Below, in pieces: positions 53,646 to 62,714 of a DNA stretch of 64,000 nucleotides (position 1 is its first letter; every line of letters starts with the position of its first letter). The DNA comes from Lumbricus terrestris (taxonomy: Eukaryota > Annelida > Clitellata > Crassiclitellata > Lumbricidae). The notes beneath the pieces were generated by a model. It ran no database searches and had not been told where the DNA came from. It worked only from the letters and a program-made list of their open reading frames with translations. The position numbers were made by a program, and so were the translations under genes. The stretch spans positions 23,831,682-23,895,681 of the forward strand of contig OX457053.1 of NCBI GenBank assembly GCA_949752735.1, in the 5' to 3' direction.

Positions 53646-55224
53646 TAGCGACGTATAACTACGCTACGGGTCGCTAATATTATTTTATTTAATTTTTGAT
53701 CGATTATGGGGTTTCAGGGATCTGATATATTTGTTTTATTTCTGTATTTTTGAGCTGCCTTGTGTGACCTATATTTTAATGTTGATTTGCGCTTGACACG
53801 GGTCACAGCGACCGCTGACGTAGGCAGCAGTCGTTGCTGTTTCATTAATTGGTATATTTTCACACGCTCTCAGCGATCGTCGGTCGCTGTCTTCAAAGGC
53901 CGCGCCGCTTGCAGTCGATGAGGGTAATTAAACTTTCGCACGCTCTCTGAGGTGGTCTGATGATCAGAGTGAGCGAGGAATACAGCCAGCCAGACAAGCA
54001 CAGGCAGGGACACGGATTGAGAAGGAAACACCGTTGGCGTGTGGGTCTGTGTACGTGTGTTTTCTCAAGGTTGAACTAGTGCATTTGATGCCTACGTGAT
54101 CAGCGGCAGATGGCGCTTTTCAGAAGGAGAGATAGAAGGAGAAAGACAGTGAGCTATAGACAGACGCGGAGATACACAGGAGAGGACGCAGCTGGCAGCT
54201 AATTCTTGCCGCCTTGAAACAGCTGCGTTGCTGCTGGGTTTGCGCGCGCGGCTCACTTGCTGGTCATGCGCAGAAAGGGGGACGCTCTCCTTGTCAGGCA
54301 GTAATAAAAGAGCAGCGCGACGCTGAGAGGCTCAGTTGCGCACAGGATCTCAGGGCGGTCGGATGTATTGCGGCGGTTGGTAGTTTTAGGCTCGATCAAG
54401 TTGGTGAAGCATGGCCAGGATAAGCGCCTGCTTGCACTAGTTGCGCATACACGGATTCTGTCGGCGATTCATTCTCTCTCGACATGGAGTCGAATTATTA
54501 AGAGAGTTAGTTTGTTGCGAGAAATACATCAGCGTCGCTGCAAGTTTTGTCTTCGCTCTCGCTTCGGATATATTCCTGGATTACTAATTCAAGGCCTCTC
54601 TTCGCCCTGTCACACGGAGTGATTTATCGTGGGCTTCGAATCGTCAGCGTTCTGAAATTGTGTTGCGAAGCGGTTGTTCGTATGGTTGCCTAAGGGCGTC
54701 TTTCTCAAACGGCTTGGATAAATAGCCGAAATTGTTGTTCATTGCGAGAAATCAGCATCGGATTTAGCTGATCTTTTCGGGCGTTTCAAACTCGACGCCT
54801 TTCTGTGTGTTTCGTCGCATCTCTTGGATATCGTCTTCGTCGCTGTTCTTCGCACGCGATCGGCTTTGTCCCTTGTCTTCGGACATAAGGTACGCTTTAT
54901 TGGGGAATTAATACGATCGGTTATTAAGACATTTTGGGCTGAACTGAAATTGGCTGTGGGACTTGAGAGTCAATCGGGAGTTAAGTTAGGCATACTCCGG
55001 TTGATAGGTGTTTGCATTGAATTGTTGCATTTGATTTTCATTGAATGTCTTTACAAAGGATAGGAACTGATAATTGAACTTACTGACTTTTATGTTTGAT
55101 TGCTTCGAGCATAATTGATGTCAATTGAAGATTCAAGTGATTGTGAATAATAAGAAATATTAATTAAACTTCTGACTTTGATCATTGATGGCATTGAATG
55201 CAACTGACGTTGAATGAATACTTG
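53646..55224 (+). mobile_element. Probable LTR/leader of the element interrupted by the Gmr1-like insertion
   Basis: 1.6 kb without a convincing ORF, GC-richer than its surroundings. It begins TGTAGCGACG inside the right end of a Tc1-like element. Near its start TAGCGAC and GTCGCTA form a short inverted pair. An AATAAAAG box lies near 54303. It continues after the LTR element into the ORF at 62715. I infer a 5' LTR plus untranslated leader but cannot place the LTR end. Confidence 0.45.
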
Positions 55225-55807
55225 TGTCAACACCCAATTGACCTTCAAAGTTTTCTCCCGTTTTTTCCCTTGTGTTCAGTAGCGTAGCCTACACCTAGCC
55301 TAGTCACTGTATTTCGATATCTAAAGCTAGGGTATAAATCTCTAAAGTTCTTAACTTGTTCAATTACAACAAAGCTCTGTTTCTTGTATTTTCTTCTTCT
55401 TCGTTCATAACACACGCAGATAACACAACAATAGATCAACGACGACAAACGCTTGAATTCTACGACAGCAACGCAACTATTATTATCTAAACTCCACTGT
55501 TCTCTAAAACGTCTTCTACTCTCTCTCTACTATCAACGCCTTCTTCTACTAACTCTTACACTGTCTGGGCGTACACTCTTCCCCTGGCCGCTCTGTCCTT
55601 CTCTCTGCCTCTCTTCGTGTATCTGTCCGTCTGTCTGTCTGTCTCTCTCGCTCTCTCGCGCGCTTCGGCGACGGTCGGCCGAGCCGCGCTAATTTTCCCG
55701 CCAGTCTGGCACCTGCAGGCCTAACTGTCTAGACGCTGACCTTGAGCTGGTCTAGTCGTACGCCTAAACATCAACTGACTAAATAGACTATACAAAATTA
55801 GCTCACA
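55225..55807 (-). repeat. 3' LTR of the Gmr1-like element
   Basis: 583 bp, the same sequence as 62084-62666 as far as I can compare by eye. It begins TGTCAACACCC and ends AGCTCACA on the plus strand. It includes a CT/GTCT-rich stretch near 55610-55660. Confidence 0.96.
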
Positions 55808-55810
55808 TTA

Positions 55811-55827
55811 CCTCCTTCCTTTCTTTT
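55811..55827 (-). other. Polypurine tract of the Gmr1-like element
   Basis: On the minus strand AAAAGAAAGGAAGGAGG, three bases from the 3' LTR, where plus-strand priming is expected. Confidence 0.8.
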
Positions 55828-55920
55828 AAAGAGAGCTAATTACCTATAAAAATTAGCGAACGTATCTTAACTAAACAATGCAAATAGTCCATAACATAAT
55901 ACATCATAAAATATCTTATA

Positions 55921-58900
55921 CTACAATCTAGACAGACAATCGGCTACTACATTCAATTTACCTTTCTTATAGTTCAATAGAATGTCAAAATTTTGCAATG
56001 ATAAAGACCATCTGACTAATTTAGCAGATTTCGACATTGATTCAGTCAAATAAACTAAAGGGTTATGGTCCGTAAACACATTGATTTTAGAACCAATAAG
56101 AATTTCTTTCAACTTGTTTAAAGCCCATATGATCGCATAGGCTTCCTTCTCAATCGTCGCCCACCTCCTCTGAGTATCTGTCAGCTTCTGACTGATAAAT
56201 GAAACGGGACGTTCTATCCCTTCCTCGTCCACCTGAGACAGGACCGCTCCCACAGCAAAATCACTGCTATCACAGTACAAATTAAATGGTTTCCCAACCT
56301 CAAACATATATAGAATCACATTTGACAAGACAATCTGCTTAAGGGAATCAAAGGCTTTCTGATGTACATCAGTCCAAACAATGTTATCAGGTACTTTCTT
56401 GCTAGTCAAGTCTGTTAATGGTTTAGCAATTTCAGCAAAATTACAAATAAACTGTCTGTAAAATCCAAAAAATCCTAAGACTTGCTTCACTTCCTTTCTG
56501 GTTTCAGGTTTCTTCAAATTAATTAAACTGTCAATCCTGTCTGGATTCATCATCTTCTTCCCTGATCCTATGAGGTGACCGATGAACTTCACCTCACTCT
56601 TACCAAACACACATTTCTTCAAGTTCAATGTTACATTATGCAGTCTTATTTGTTTCAAAAATAATTCCAAATGTTTCAAATGAATGTCCCAATCATTAGA
56701 ATGCACTGCAATGTCATCAACATAAGGTTCAGTAAAATCATGAATCGGTTGCAAAATCATATTTATCGCTTTTACAAAAGTCCGTCCTGAGTTAATCATT
56801 CCAAAAGGAACACGCGTAAATTCATACAGTCCATTATGTGTAACGAACGCAGTCTTCCATTGGTCACTCTTTTTCACAGGACAAGTCCAATATGCACTGC
56901 GACAGTCCAGAACAGAAATGAACTTGGATTTTCCAACTTTGCTCAAGACATCGTTGACGATTGGCATAGGATATCGACAATTTTCAGTAAAAGAGTTAAT
57001 GTATCTGTAGTCACAAGCCAATCTCAAGGATCCATTCTTCTTTTTGACAATGACAAGTGGACTTGCCATTCTGCTTGACGATGGTTGAATAATGTTTTCT
57101 TTCAGCATCTCTTGTATTTGTTTTTCCACTTCTGCTCGGTATATTAATGGTATTCGATATGCCATGAATTCTTTTTCGCGAAAGTCTGGCCTCAGCACCA
57201 CTTCGTGTTCTATCAACGTACATAATCCAGGTTTGTCTGAGAATCTGTCAGCGTATCGATTCAGTACATCCAGTAATTGTTTCTGTTGCTCGCTGGTCAG
57301 ATGTCCAATTTGTTCGTAATCCAATTGAAGTGACTTCTGTTTTGTCTCTGAATAATCTTCCTTCAGCGGTATTTCTACCACTGATCCAAATTCGTCATCC
57401 TCTTCCACGATCAGACCACAAGACAATGTTCTCGTAATGAACTTCCTCATCTTGTTAGCATGAATAATCCGTCGACCGTTTTCGTTCATGTCCACCAGAT
57501 ACGAATATTTGGATCTTCTTTGCAGGACCTTGCATGGACCATGCCATCGTGAGATCAATTTATTGGTTGACGTTGGATACAGCACGATGACGTTCTCTCC
57601 TGGCTCGAATTCTTTATCTTTTGCTCTTTTGTTGTATTGACTGGCGTACTGTTTTTGCTTTTCTCCAGCACAGCTCTCGGCGAATGTCAAGGCCTTTTCC
57701 ATGTCGGCTCTTAAATTTTTCAGGTATTTTGCCGGTTGCACTCCAATGTTCGGTGGTAGATTTATTTCTTTGGTCCAGCTTTCTTTAAGGATGGTGAGTG
57801 GCCCTCTCGGCAACTTTCCATAGACCAGCAAATACGGTGCCACTCCTGTAGTTGCGTTAGGCACTTCTCTCAATGCCCATACTGTAAATGGAATAATTTT
57901 ATGCCACTGTCTCGGATTTTCCACAACGACATGATGAATCATTTTCTTGAACGTTTGATTCCATCTCTCCACCAATCCTGCCGCTTCTGGATGTCCTGGC
58001 GAATCGAATCGAGGACAACATCCCATCAGTTTCAGAAATTCTCTTGTTAGACTGGCTGTAAAATTCGTCCCTCTGTCGCTCGTGATCACTGACGGAACTC
58101 CCACATCCATGAACAGCTTCATCAAAGCTTCGCATACAGCCTTCGCGGTCAATGACTTCATCAAGAATATTGTCGGCCATCTTGTACATGAGTCCACGAT
58201 GCACAAACAATACTTATGCCCTGCTGCTGAAGTTGGTTCGATCGGTCCTACGACGTCCATGGTCATTCTTCTGAACGGCACATCCTCTCTTGGTATTGGT
58301 GTAATCGGCACTCGATCCATCACCAAACTCCGTGCTTTCAGCTGACACTTCTCACAGGACTTGCAGAACTTCACCACATCTCTACGCATCCTTGGCCACA
58401 CAAAGGACAACTTGATACGTTCCCTTGTCTTCTCTTCTCCCAAGTGTCCGCCAAATACTGACTCATGTGCTAATTCCATCACCTGAATTCTTCTTTCCTT
58501 CGGCAACACCAACTGATACACCAACTGGTCCAACATTTGATGCTTCTTATACATCAACCCATTCACCACACTAAACTCTGATCCTTTGTCTTCAGCTATC
58601 TTCCACCACGACTTCAGTGACTCGTCATTTCTCTGCTGCTCTTCAAATTTCATTGCGTCTGCCAATTGTCTTTCATCACTCGTATTCTCGGCAAACAAAT
58701 CCCTCATACTCGTGTCCATTTCACCATCACTTCCAGAATCATCATAATCATTATCACGTTCACATGCAACCATCTCTTCTTCAATTTCATTGTTTCCGGA
58801 TGTTATTCCTTCTTCTTCTTGAATGCTTTGTTCATCATCGCTTTCTGTATCCTCATCTAGCAAACTTTCATTTGACTTTTCCTCTTCTCCTTCTTCCACT

Positions 58901-61506
58901 TCATTTCTCCGACTCTGTGCTCTTGTAGTCACATTCGCTTGCAACTCTCCTTGTAATACATTCACTGGTGGAACCTCTTTCAGTTCTGCGATTATCTCCG
59001 GATGCAGCAAGAATTTCTCTTTGTTATCTTTGCACAAGACTGCCGGAATGCTGGCACACACTAAGGTTAAATATGGCGCGATATTTACTCCCTTGTCTTT
59101 CCAATCTCCTCCTTCGTTATGACAACTCATCCGCACTTCGATTTTCACCAACTTAGCTGGAATGGGTTCTCCAGCCACACATTGCAAATGTACTCTGCCA
59201 ATTTCTTCCACTGTCGCTCCTTTCAACAATTCCTCATTGATTACTGGAATCTCTGTACCAGAGTCGATCAGCGCTCTGACTTGCACGGGATGACAACTGT
59301 CATCATTTCCACGTATCTCTACATTGACATGCTGTAGTAAAGACTTCTTTGTACGTTGACACTCATCTTTGCTTTCTGTTTCTCGACCAGCATCTTTAAT
59401 TGGAGCAGAATTTACTATTTCTCTCTGTATAGCAAATTGAGGCGTGCACTTCATCACTGACTTCACTTCCGTTTCGCGGTTGTCTTGTTCTTCATACTGA
59501 TTCGGTGCATTCCTTACTTGTATCTGATTTACTCTGAGATTTTCTGCACTTCGAGTAAATCTATTTCTCAGATTTGTCGTTCTTGGTGGTGCTTTGCAAT
59601 CCTTTATCAGATGTCGGTCTGACTGACAATTATGGCAACGTTTCTTAATAATCCCTCTCTGTTCAGTGTTCTCCCGCCTGTAATTGTACGCTGTATTGTT
59701 TTCTCTTTGGCGTCCCATCACTGGAATTCGACTGTACATTTGTCTGTCACCCGTTGCTTCTCTTCTATCTTGACCAAACTGTCTTCCAGGAGCACCATCA
59801 TTCCTCGCTTCGTTATTTCTGGCTTGGTTTCCTGTTTCTTTGTTATTACTATTCCACCTGGGTTGCTTCGAACTATTACCCCATGCTTCATATCTCGGTT
59901 TGTCTTGAAACATTAGACCAATTCGATTATTCACGTGTACGTCTGCGAGTTCTGCAACATTACTGGCTTCCAAGCATTCAGTACCCTCTTTTGCTAGTAC
60001 GAACTGTAGTGGACCCGGTGGTAGACATTCTTTCAATTTATCCGCCACCAACAGATCAAATAACTTCTCGTAGCTTTTACCCACTCGCCTACTTCTGACA
60101 TAATAGTTCAACAGGTTCTTTAATCTTGCTGTAAACATCGTGTATGTTTCTTCCGCCGTTTTCCTCGCATCTCCAAATCGTGATCGATATTCTCTCGCTG
60201 TCAATTTGAATTCTTTCAGTAAATGTTCTTTCACTATGTCGTAATCGTCTAGATCATCGAAAGACAATCGATTCAACACCGTTCTTGCTCTTGGCGTCAT
60301 TAGTGGCAACAGCAATTTGACCCAAAACTGCTTTTCCACCGTAAAACTGTTGAATGCATTCTCAACTGTCTCAAAATATAATGGCACCTCCATCATATCA
60401 TATGGCATCTTAGGTAATACGTGTTTCATTGCATCACCTATCTTTTTAATCTTGGACACCATTGTCTCACTTTCTCTGACCCTGGTTCGTTCTGACTCTT
60501 CACGACTTCTTCTTTCGTCTTCATTTCGTTCCCTCAGTCTATTTTGATCTTCTACCCTACGCAGTTCTTCTTGTTCTATCATTTGCTGCAACAATTCTAA
60601 CTGTCTTCTACGTTCCTCCTTTTCTATAGCCATTTCTCGAAGCTGAGCTTCCTTAAGAGCGAGTTTCTTTTGTTCTAATTCTAATTGTTCTTCCCTTTCT
60701 CTTTCCGCTTTTTCCAAATTTTCTTTCTCCATTTTCAATTCTTCCTGTCGAATCTCTTCGGCTCTTTGTAATTCTGCCAAACGCATGGCTTCTTTGTCTT
60801 CCTCACGCATCTTTTGCTCTTCGATCTGTTGTTTTCGTATTTCTTCATCACTTTTCCTTGCCCTCTCGTATTCTATCATCAATTCCATTCTTCTTCGTTC
60901 TGCTTCGTCACGATCTTTTTTCATTTGTTCTAGCTGAAGCTGGAACTGCTGCTTCTGCATCTGTATCTCTTCTTGTCTCATCCTTTCTGCTTGTTCTGCT
61001 CTTACTTTTTCCTCTTGTCTCCGTTCTTTCTCTTCTTGTTTCCTTTGTTCCTCTTTCTCTTTCTCCTCCTGTCTCCGTTGCTCTTCTTTCTCTTTCTCCT
61101 CCTGTCTCCGTTTCTCTTCTTTCTCTTTCTCCTCCTGTCTCCGTTTCTCTTCTTTCTCTTTCTCTTCTTGTTTTTGTTCTTTCTCCTCTCGTCTGCGTTG
61201 CTCCTCTTTTTCTTTCTCTTCTTGTTTCCGTTCTTTCTCTTCTTGTCTGCGTTGCTCCTCCTTCATCATCATAAATTGCATCAACGCCTCCATAGACATA
61301 GCCTGTGGTTTCTCCTCAACGCCACCTACAGCGCCTTTCTCTTCAGCTTCCTTTAGCCACACCTCTGCTAGGGCTCTCATCAAATTTTCCCTTGACATCT
61401 CTTCGACTTCTTCTATGTCGAGACCCTCTTCAATTAATAACTTTATTAATCGAGCAGACGACATCTTCTTTATACTCGCTTGCTTTTGTTCCGTAAGTTT
61501 CTCCAT
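55921..61506 (-). CDS. Gag-pol polyprotein: gag - protease - integrase - RT - RNase H
   Basis: 1861 codons without stop or frameshift. Residues 1-340 open with a short helical head and then a Glu/Lys/Arg/Gln-rich coiled coil made of repeats such as RRQEEKEKEEK. A capsid-like region follows to about 550. A CX2CX4HX4C zinc knuckle (CHNCQSDRHLIKDC) lies near 622-637 and an aspartic protease with ALIDSGTEIPVI near 748. The integrase has an HHCC finger (about 1010-1060, ending CKSCEKC) and D,D,E residues in MTMDVVGP, SDRGTNF and GLVERWN (about 1083, 1143, 1178). A GPY/F-like module WHGPCKVLQ follows near 1323. The reverse transcriptase (about 1470-1650) has YVDD near 1596. RNase H (CDSSDFAVGAVLS, EKEAYAIIWAL, TDHNPL) runs to the stop. 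All catalytic residues I looked for are present. No envelope ORF is seen. Confidence 0.95.
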   Translation of the reverse strand: MEKLTEQKQASIKKMSSARLIKLLIEEGLDIEEVEEMSRENLMRALAEVWLKEAEEKGAVGGVEEKPQAMSMEALMQFMMMKEEQRRQEEKERKQEEKEKEEQRRREEKEQKQEEKEKEEKRRQEEKEKEEKRRQEEKEKEEQRRQEEKEKEEQRKQEEKERRQEEKVRAEQAERMRQEEIQMQKQQFQLQLEQMKKDRDEAERRRMELMIEYERARKSDEEIRKQQIEEQKMREEDKEAMRLAELQRAEEIRQEELKMEKENLEKAEREREEQLELEQKKLALKEAQLREMAIEKEERRRQLELLQQMIEQEELRRVEDQNRLRERNEDERRSREESERTRVRESETMVSKIKKIGDAMKHVLPKMPYDMMEVPLYFETVENAFNSFTVEKQFWVKLLLPLMTPRARTVLNRLSFDDLDDYDIVKEHLLKEFKLTAREYRSRFGDARKTAEETYTMFTARLKNLLNYYVRSRRVGKSYEKLFDLLVADKLKECLPPGPLQFVLAKEGTECLEASNVAELADVHVNNRIGLMFQDKPRYEAWGNSSKQPRWNSNNKETGNQARNNEARNDGAPGRQFGQDRREATGDRQMYSRIPVMGRQRENNTAYNYRRENTEQRGIIKKRCHNCQSDRHLIKDCKAPPRTTNLRNRFTRSAENLRVNQIQVRNAPNQYEEQDNRETEVKSVMKCTPQFAIQREIVNSAPIKDAGRETESKDECQRTKKSLLQHVNVEIRGNDDSCHPVQVRALIDSGTEIPVINEELLKGATVEEIGRVHLQCVAGEPIPAKLVKIEVRMSCHNEGGDWKDKGVNIAPYLTLVCASIPAVLCKDNKEKFLLHPEIIAELKEVPPVNVLQGELQANVTTRAQSRRNEVEEGEEEKSNESLLDEDTESDDEQSIQEEEGITSGNNEIEEEMVACERDNDYDDSGSDGEMDTSMRDLFAENTSDERQLADAMKFEEQQRNDESLKSWWKIAEDKGSEFSVVNGLMYKKHQMLDQLVYQLVLPKERRIQVMELAHESVFGGHLGEEKTRERIKLSFVWPRMRRDVVKFCKSCEKCQLKARSLVMDRVPITPIPREDVPFRRMTMDVVGPIEPTSAAGHKYCLCIVDSCTRWPTIFLMKSLTAKAVCEALMKLFMDVGVPSVITSDRGTNFTASLTREFLKLMGCCPRFDSPGHPEAAGLVERWNQTFKKMIHHVVVENPRQWHKIIPFTVWALREVPNATTGVAPYLLVYGKLPRGPLTILKESWTKEINLPPNIGVQPAKYLKNLRADMEKALTFAESCAGEKQKQYASQYNKRAKDKEFEPGENVIVLYPTSTNKLISRWHGPCKVLQRRSKYSYLVDMNENGRRIIHANKMRKFITRTLSCGLIVEEDDEFGSVVEIPLKEDYSETKQKSLQLDYEQIGHLTSEQQKQLLDVLNRYADRFSDKPGLCTLIEHEVVLRPDFREKEFMAYRIPLIYRAEVEKQIQEMLKENIIQPSSSRMASPLVIVKKKNGSLRLACDYRYINSFTENCRYPMPIVNDVLSKVGKSKFISVLDCRSAYWTCPVKKSDQWKTAFVTHNGLYEFTRVPFGMINSGRTFVKAINMILQPIHDFTEPYVDDIAVHSNDWDIHLKHLELFLKQIRLHNVTLNLKKCVFGKSEVKFIGHLIGSGKKMMNPDRIDSLINLKKPETRKEVKQVLGFFGFYRQFICNFAEIAKPLTDLTSKKVPDNIVWTDVHQKAFDSLKQIVLSNVILYMFEVGKPFNLYCDSSDFAVGAVLSQVDEEGIERPVSFISQKLTDTQRRWATIEKEAYAIIWALNKLKEILIGSKINVFTDHNPLVYLTESMSKSAKLVRWSLSLQNFDILLNYKKGKLNVVADCLSRL

Positions 61507-61807
61507 CTTACTTTCTTACTTCAACTGATTTGCGTGAAGAAATCGAGGGAGTGACTATGCTTTCTGCAATTAGCTGACTTTACTTCTTATGGCTTGTTTA
61601 TACAAGGAGCGAGTTTTGTATACCTCTCTCTGGCGTTGTCGTAATGTTATTCGTATACCCGTTGTATCTTCTCACCAGTTGTTCGGATGCTCCGTTTCCT
61701 TCTCCCGTTTGGTCGGCTCCTCAGATTAATTCGATATTCACCTTCAATTTACGGACGGTGAATATTCCGAAAATTGACGTCGACAATGCTTCGTAAGCAA
61801 AATCCAC

Positions 61808-62033
61808 CGTAGATATTCCTCCGACTGAAAATATTCCTCCGATTGAAAATATTCCTCCAAATGAAAATATTCCTCCAATTGAAAATATTCCTCCGATTGA
61901 AAATATTCCTCCGATTGAAAATGTTGCTCCAATTGAAAATATTCCTCCGATTGAAAATATTCCTCCAAATGAAAATATTCCTTCAATTGAAAATGTTGCT
62001 CCGATTGAAAATATTCCTCCGACTGAGTTCACT
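61808..62033 (-). repeat. 12-copy 18-bp minisatellite in the retrotransposon leader
   Basis: The unit ATTCCTCCGATTGAAAAT (plus strand) repeats about 12 times with few changes. Because 18 is a multiple of three, all copies stay in frame. A 103-codon upstream ORF (61721-62032, minus) reads GGIFSI hexapeptides through it, before the gag start at 61506. Confidence 0.9.
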
Positions 62034-62061
62034 ATCCCAACGTCCGTTGCTTGAATTCAGT

Positions 62062-62079
62062 ATCTCACCGCTGTCACCA
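62062..62079 (-). other. Putative tRNA primer-binding site
   Basis: Four bases inside the 5' LTR the minus strand reads TGGTGACAGCGGTGAGAT. It starts with TGG, as a site pairing with a tRNA 3' CCA end should. I cannot assign the tRNA. Confidence 0.55.
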
Positions 62080-62083
62080 AAAA

Positions 62084-62666
62084 TGTCAACACCCAATTGA
62101 CCTTCAAAGTTTTCTCCCGTTTTTTCCCTTGTGTTCAGTAGCGTAGCCTACACCTAGCCTAGTCACTGTATTTCGATATCTAAAGCTAGGGTATAAATCT
62201 CTAAAGTTCTTAACTTGTTCAATTACAACAAAGCTCTGTTTCTTGTATTTTCTTCTTCTTCGTTCATAACACACGCAGATAACACAACAATAGATCAACG
62301 ACGACAAACGCTTGAATTCTACGACAGCAACGCAACTATTATTATCTAAACTCCACTGTTCTCTAAAACGTCTTCTACTCTCTCTCTACTATCAACGCCT
62401 TCTTCTACTAACTCTTACACTGTCTGGGCGTACACTCTTCCCCTGGCCGCTCTGTCCTTCTCTCTGCCTCTCTTCGTGTATCTGTCCGTCTGTCTGTCTG
62501 TCTCTCTCGCTCTCTCGCGCGCTTCGGCGACGGTCGGCCGAGCCGCGCTAATTTTCCCGCCAGTCTGGCACCTGCAGGCCTAACTGTCTAGACGCTGACC
62601 TTGAGCTGGTCTAGTCGTACGCCTAAACATCAACTGACTAAATAGACTATACAAAATTAGCTCACA
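62084..62666 (-). repeat. 5' LTR of the Gmr1-like element
   Basis: 583 bp, pair of 55225-55807. The short ORFs inside both LTRs are identical shadows and not genes. Confidence 0.96.
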
Positions 62667-62714
62667 ACTTGATTGATTGTGAGCTCTAAAGATAGAAGTC
62701 ATTTCTATAGCGCT

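What the first reader, a model, noticed from the sequence alone, without database searches (positions are those of the whole stretch)
55225..62666. Apparently intact Gmr1-like retrotransposon: gypsy-type proteins in copia-type order
The single 1861-aa ORF carries gag, protease, then integrase, then reverse transcriptase and RNase H. In ordinary Ty3/gypsy elements integrase comes last. The LTRs look identical by eye, the ORF is unbroken, catalytic motifs (DSG, D-D-E, YVDD) are present and the 5-bp target duplication is perfect. It therefore looks very young and possibly still active. The domain order and repeats are read directly; the Gmr1 assignment is established knowledge of that group; activity is inference.
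Basis: partly seen in the sequence, partly recalled or inferred. Interest (0 to 1): 0.88.

Follow-up and report, generated by a model that had tools for sequence, protein, structure and literature searches.

The report
Young earthworm jumping gene, integrase first
This is a complete, recently copied LTR retrotransposon of the common earthworm with its enzymes in an unusual but known order, and its near-identical copies appear to record which transfer RNAs primed their making.

Summary
Confirmed. Window 55225-62666 (minus strand) is a complete LTR retrotransposon of the earthworm Lumbricus terrestris: identical 583-bp LTRs, target duplication ACTTG, and one open 1861-codon frame ordered Gag, protease, integrase, RT, RNase H. 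Both enzymes are of Ty3/gypsy type. RT and integrase trees each separate integrase-first from standard-order elements by one branch, so the order looks old and inherited. This is the known Gmr1-like arrangement, already reported in an annelid: a new member of a known kind. No sequence labelled Gmr1 was held for comparison.

The copies are more interesting. Of 113 scored integrase matches, 93 score like the window's own and 96 lie in open frames of at least 1835 codons. In 89 of 100 listed copies the primer-binding site matches a tRNA-Leu gene class found in the genome; 9 match none and look mosaic; 2 are odd. Another 27 junctions carry a longer tRNA-Leu piece, 21 beginning at base 38, though 14 share one ambiguous junction. 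One such copy has a target duplication. Reverse transcription may sometimes pass position 58, stop at 37, and transfer elsewhere. Present activity was not tested.

The parts
55225..62666 (-). whole element, 7442 bp
   Evidence: LTRs and target duplication
55220..55224 (.). target duplication ACTTG, low side
55225..55807 (-). 3' LTR, 583 bp
   Evidence: identical to 62084-62666
55808..55827 (-). purine-rich tract directly before the 3' LTR, taken as the polypurine tract
   Evidence: read from sequence; function inferred
55921..61506 (-). single gag-pol ORF, 1861 aa, no break
55924..57219 (-). reverse transcriptase and RNase H (residues 1430-1861)
   Evidence: Pfam; Ty3 4ol8 E 2.9e-73
57427..58509 (-). 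integrase: H2C2 zinc-binding, DD35E core, WHGP motif (residues 1000-1360)
58702..59289 (-). protease region around DSG (residues 740-935; limits approximate)
   Evidence: motif at 59257-59271; no Pfam protease match
59596..59637 (-). Gag CCHC zinc knuckle
59902..60384 (-). Gag capsid-like region, SCAN-like (residues 375-535)
60931..61284 (-). Gag N-terminal charged repeats, 7- and 11-residue units, coiled-coil-like
   Evidence: coil inferred, not predicted
61673..61679 (+). CACCAGT in the leader, where 14 of 27 tRNA-extended junctions join
61813..62026 (.). 18-bp tandem array in the leader (12 units here; 10-17 in 16 copies read)
62062..62079 (-). 18-nt primer-binding site for tRNA-Leu
62084..62666 (-). 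5' LTR, 583 bp
62667..62671 (.). target duplication ACTTG, high side

Best explanation
A recently inserted, complete copy of an autonomous Gmr1-like Ty3/gypsy retrotransposon family of Lumbricus terrestris. Shown from sequence: LTRs, target duplication, PBS, purine tract, open gag-pol frame, near-identical copies, and an integrase-first order shared by a lineage in which RT and integrase have travelled together. Inferred: transcription from the 5' LTR, one Gag-Pol precursor cut by the protease, minus-strand synthesis primed by tRNA-Leu, plus-strand strong-stop DNA copying the tRNA end up to position 59 and so rewriting the PBS, then integration with a 5-bp duplication. In some copies the plus strand seems to have run past position 58 to base 38 and transferred at another place instead of the PBS.
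For: LTRs and duplication. Domain order, opposite in Ty3. 119 of 120 listed relatives integrase-first. RT tree one change of order, 94/96; integrase tree one change, 91/94; RT and integrase distances correlated, r 0.86 over 112 proteins, 0 of 999 permutations as high. Copies: the 28 non-window LTRs among 30 loci are identical to each other, and 12 of 13 pairs have matching flanks; of 113 integrase matches scored out of 5267 candidates, 93 are listed at 100% with the window's own score and 20 at 99%, no stops inside, 96 in frames of at least 1835 codons. PBS: 148 junctions in the genome, 0 in the reversed control, first 100 listed: 52, 23, 9 and 5 are of four classes that also occur as tRNA-Leu genes. 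Extended junctions: 27 of 27 carry CCA after the tRNA end, against 0 of 13 tRNA genes. The C12 extended copy has ACTAC on both sides and an integrase in an open frame of 1893 between its LTRs.
Against: No RNA or polymorphism data. The near-identical copies are the best-scoring ones, so the family's age spread is unknown; 17 of 113 lie in shorter frames and one LTR pair has no matching flanks. 9 of 100 PBS copies match no tRNA gene found, 2 are odd, and the window's own PBS has one base no gene found explains. The tRNA search pattern was written after the first copies had been seen and allowed changes at five sites only, so the comparison of sites describes and does not prove. The first 300 nt of gag also vary (50 of 4800 cells, compared without gaps). 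The 14 leader junctions share a 7-nt homology, so their tRNA boundary is ambiguous and some may be inherited. SCAN match is below Pfam's cut-off and a PDB profile search found no SCAN structure.
Confidence: 0.9

Rival explanations
1. A gypsy element that captured a Ty1/copia integrase or was rebuilt recently by recombination.
For: The order resembles copia.
Against: Integrase is of Ty3/retroviral type (Ty3 E 2e-30; 7z0h, recalled as Ty1, 0.0013); RT and integrase trees agree on the split by order and distances correlate.
Confidence: 0.02
2. Assembly artefact or two nested elements.
For: None found.
Against: One unbroken frame, one pair of LTRs, a target duplication, and many other copies in long open frames on other contigs.
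Confidence: 0.01
3. PBS variants and tRNA-extended junctions are inherited subfamily variants or tRNA pseudogenes, not a record of priming in each copy.
For: 14 of 27 extended junctions share one site; 9 of 100 PBS types have no matching gene.
Against: CCA in 27 of 27 and in 0 of 13 genes; four PBS classes equal four tRNA-Leu gene classes; 13 of 27 junctions lie elsewhere.
Confidence: 0.2
4. Recently mobile but now silenced family.
For: No activity data were available; identity only dates past copying.
Against: Many open frames and identical LTRs among the copies scored.
Confidence: 0.4

Closest known systems
Gmr1-like Ty3/gypsy clade (Gmr1 of cod; Goodwin and Poulter 2002, seen only as cited in passages of PMC8220671, PMC3587641 and PMC6238403)
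   Same: Integrase upstream of RT, gypsy-type enzymes; single long gag-pol frame as in the Gmr elements of PMC11117352 (table passage). The other ORFs of 80 aa or more listed over the element are at most 138 aa long.
   Different: 7442 bp against consensus lengths of 6058-6465 bp for Gmr1-4 of tetraodontiform fish (PMC11117352, table passage); repeat-rich Gag N-terminus and leader array; oligochaete host. The type element was not compared directly.
LGF3 Gmr1 family of the annelid Lamellibrachia luymesi (PMC8220671, passages)
   Same: Annelid host; placed in Gmr1 by its authors.
Ty3 of yeast (PDB 7q5b, 4ol8)
   Same: Homologous RT, RNase H and integrase.
   Different: Opposite domain order; its tRNA-Met primer is recalled, not checked.
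HIV-1 plus-strand strong-stop products P2 and P5 (PMC13191261, passages)
   Same: Main stop before m1A58, minor stop at modified base 37.
   Different: [quoted passage not shown] here a product ending by base 38 seems to have led to inserted copies by transfer at another site.

Membership tests
LTR retrotransposon | paired LTRs, target duplication, PBS and purine tract | tested here: met
Gmr1-like Ty3/gypsy | integrase upstream of RT in one polyprotein | tested here: met
Gmr1-like Ty3/gypsy | RT of Ty3/gypsy type | tested here: met
Gmr1-like Ty3/gypsy | integrase of Ty3/gypsy type (H2C2, DD35E) | tested here: met
Gmr1-like Ty3/gypsy | RT and integrase on the side of the other integrase-first elements | tested here: met
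   one change each, 94/96 and 91/94 (not starred); five standard-order rows only, long-branch warnings for Ty3 and L070, no AU test run
Gmr1-like Ty3/gypsy | grouping with the cod Gmr1 itself | not testable with these tools
   no sequence labelled Gmr1 in the listings
Gmr1-like Ty3/gypsy | Gag capsid related to the SCAN domain (PMC3424704, PMC4592553, passages) | tested here: inconclusive
   SCAN E 0.0053, 17 bits against cut-off 27; 5 of 30 members match at E 0.05; profile match to an alignment of three SCAN-bearing relatives, probability 98.7; no PDB SCAN hit
Ty1/copia | copia-type integrase | tested here: not met
   (7z0h recalled as Ty1); no copia RT was compared
active element | transcripts or new insertions | not testable with these tools
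   no RNA or population data

The most novel reading that the evidence does not exclude
The family is a genome-wide record of reverse transcription: each copy's primer-binding site is rewritten by the tRNA-Leu species that primed it (at least four classes), and some copies arose when plus-strand synthesis passed position 58, stopped beside position 37 (probably m1G37) and made the second strand transfer at another homology, producing inserted elements.
Probability: 0.6. Interest if true: 0.7.

Novelty: new member of a known kind. Interest (0 to 1): 0.52.

Why it matters
It places a young, multicopy integrase-first gypsy family in the common earthworm, beside standard-order gypsy families in the same genome. 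More widely, its near-identical copies may allow primer choice and tRNA modification stops during retrotransposition to be read from a genome.

Tried and rejected
Copia capture, nesting and misassembly were rejected. Viral contig scans gave no relatives. Structure prediction of the capsid was not accepted, so the SCAN link rests on sequence profiles. The idea that the leader stretch after CACCAGT is an old tRNA relic is weak: 32 of 2000 shuffles and 11 of 200 window tiles score as high. The prediction that the two mixed PBS types have their own tRNA genes failed: 0 hits. Naming the host by the SH3 gene failed; genome size and chromosome lengths settled it. A genome count of the leader junction did not complete.

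Full report
What is there. The element occupies 55225-62666 on the minus strand. Its LTRs are 583 bp and identical, with TG...CA ends and ACTTG outside both. In sense direction: 5' LTR; 577 nt to the start codon, made of four T, an 18-nt PBS and a leader with an 18-bp array; one ORF of 1861 codons; a purine tract; 3' LTR. Pfam finds integrase H2C2 and rve before RVT_1 and RNase H. The protease was recognised only by its DSG motif, since Pfam gave no protease match. Catalytic motifs are in place.

Host. The window lies in a genome of 1,056,305,194 bases in 331 contigs. Contigs of 98.9, 84.43, 77.17, 72.47, 69.63, 46.28, 45.14 and 36.07 Mb match Table 2 of the Lumbricus terrestris genome note (PMC10799228, passages). 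That note gives 1,056,547,181 bp in 361 scaffolds, slightly more than is held here, and chromosome GC of 40.5-41.5 against 40.6 in the window. The element's contig corresponds to its chromosome 18.

Type. RT matches Ty3 at E 9e-73. Integrase matches Ty3 at 2e-30, foamy virus integrase at 1e-30, and 7z0h_W, recalled to be Ty1 integrase, at 0.0013. A search with residues 990-1861 found 316 proteins at E 1e-5, best 120 listed; 119 of these have integrase before RT and one has no RT match. The query holds both domains in this order, so the sample leans towards it. In the same genome, of 30 loci cut out by an RNase H profile (150 matches scored of 4154 candidates), 16 are integrase-first, 13 standard and one undetermined; three more fetched are standard. 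Trees with 38 RT rows and 40 integrase rows, each with five standard-order rows, need one change of order, with support 94/96 and 91/94, and 93% and 90% of 200 bootstrap trees agree. The programme warned of long branches (Ty3 and L070 in both, P0104 in the integrase tree), and no AU test was run. Relatives were a chosen subset of the 120. Distances in the two domains correlate (r 0.86, 112 proteins). One old rearrangement followed by joint descent is the simplest reading. The order as such is known: Goodwin and Poulter 2002, seen here only as cited in passages of PMC8220671, PMC3587641, PMC6238403 and PMC2774666. Gmr1 elements have been reported in an annelid (PMC8220671, passages) and related ones in crustaceans (PMC3587641, passages). 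A search for earthworm, retrotransposon, gypsy and LTR listed four papers and one for Lumbricus terrestris with transposon terms listed twelve; no listed title or abstract start described this family, but these papers were not read through.

Gag. The capsid region scores 17 bits against SCAN, under the cut-off of 27; 5 of 30 alignment members match SCAN at E 0.05. An alignment of the region with ten relatives matches, with probability 98.7, an alignment of three relatives that all match SCAN, best E 2e-20. SCAN is said to come from the Gag of a Gmr1-like element (PMC3424704, PMC4592553, passages). A PDB profile search gave no SCAN hit. This is support, not proof.

Age and copies. A DNA probe (58000-58600, mostly integrase) had 1010 first-look candidates, of which 40 were scored, all at 99% or more; the LTR had 2002 candidates, 40 scored. 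Among 30 LTR loci cut out, the 28 outside the window are identical to each other and differ from both window LTRs at the same four positions; 12 of 13 pairs, the window's included, have matching 5-bp flanks, one of them in an AT run and so weak; the pair at C9:43.78 Mb has none. Of 113 integrase matches scored out of 5267 candidates, 93 are listed at 100% with the window's own score, 20 at 99%, none with a stop inside, and 96 lie in frames of at least 1835 codons. These are the best matches, so they describe the young end of the family. No mutation rate was measured, so no age in years is claimed.

Primer record. The PBS equals the complement of tRNA bases 59-76 (numbering recalled). In 16 copies it differs from the commonest form in five, the window's among them: 7 of 288 cells, against 3 of 608 in the next 38 nt (all in one copy), 6 of 4000 in the last 250 nt of the leader and 50 of 4800 in the first 300 nt of gag, the last two compared without gaps. 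A junction pattern with 11 free positions has 148 hits and none in the reversed control; the first 100 were listed. Counts: CCCACCGCTGC 52, CCCACCGCTGT 23, CCCACCGCTAT 9, CCCGCCGCTGC 5, CCCGCCGCTGT 5, CCCGCCGCTAT 4, others 2 (from my reading). The first four classes occur as tRNA-Leu genes: of 55 tRNA-end hits, 40 were read and 13 are genes, all 13 called tRNA-Leu with anticodon AAG or TAG; the 15 unread ones belong to one cluster on C5 whose two read members are genes. The two mixed types have no gene in a further search and may be mosaics of tRNA-copied and RNA-copied PBS. Differences from the commonest form are 71 of 300 cells at the three sites where these gene classes differ and 2 of 800 at the other eight; since the tRNA pattern was written after the first copies were seen, this describes and does not prove. 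The window's own PBS is of the second class with one further change.

Readthrough junctions. The other 27 read hits are not genes. Each has a 3' part of tRNA-Leu, then CCA and A's running into a sequence that is the window family's LTR end in three (L100, L101, L103) and looks like related LTR ends in the others (not aligned). The sequence on the other side matches this element in 26 of 27. Strict matching puts the 5'-most tRNA base at 38 in 18 of 27; allowing tRNA differences it is 21, the others being 33, 37, 39, 41, 45 and 52. Of the 21, 14 join the leader at CACCAGT (window 61673-61679), where 7 nt are shared with the tRNA, so their boundary is ambiguous. Seven lie at other places: two share 3 and 5 nt, one shares none, and for four the unbroken sequence was not found by exact match. 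The L100 copy on C12 runs 395950-403120, has ACTAC on both sides, and the first 151 nt read of its LTRs agree; an integrase in an open frame of 1893 lies between. Its middle was not read. PMC13191261 (passages) describes HIV strong-stop products that end before m1A58 (main) and at modified base 37 (minor, not among those said to be active templates), and, citing Salmonella, m1G37 in tRNAs reading codons that begin with C, CAN codons excepted, which would include these tRNA-Leu. The earthworm junctions look like the minor product used through another transfer site. Modification of earthworm tRNA is inferred. Paper searches on this point listed 15 of 75, 12 of 26, 0 and 12 of 14 papers; no listed title or abstract start described it in a retrotransposon's genomic copies. 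Only open-licence papers are held.

Verdict. The finding is right and the arrangement is known. The copies' primer record is the part worth following.

Noticed in passing
G000 places; 16 loci: Gag N-terminus differs between near-identical copies by 7- and 11-residue steps; 72 of 96 long frames fall in two of eleven length classes. Both steps would keep a coiled coil.
   Followed up: partly
window 61813-62026; 16 copies: The 18-bp leader array has 10-17 units in copies whose LTRs (window apart) are identical, so it seems to change faster than point mutation.
   Followed up: partly
G000 C1:40822535-40881665, C12:42804774-42829181, C13:5829080-5876006: Evenly spaced integrase hits (six about 11.7-11.9 kb apart, three about 12.1 kb, three about 23.3 kb) suggest tandem arrays containing such elements.
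   Followed up: no
G000 C5:10411452-10432251: Seventeen tRNA-Leu ends of one class within 21 kb, an apparent tRNA gene cluster; the two read are genes.
   Followed up: partly
   Followed up: partly
L039, L049, L068 against L054/L055, L072 and L070: A second, distant integrase-first lineage and three standard-order gypsy lineages share the genome.
   Followed up: partly
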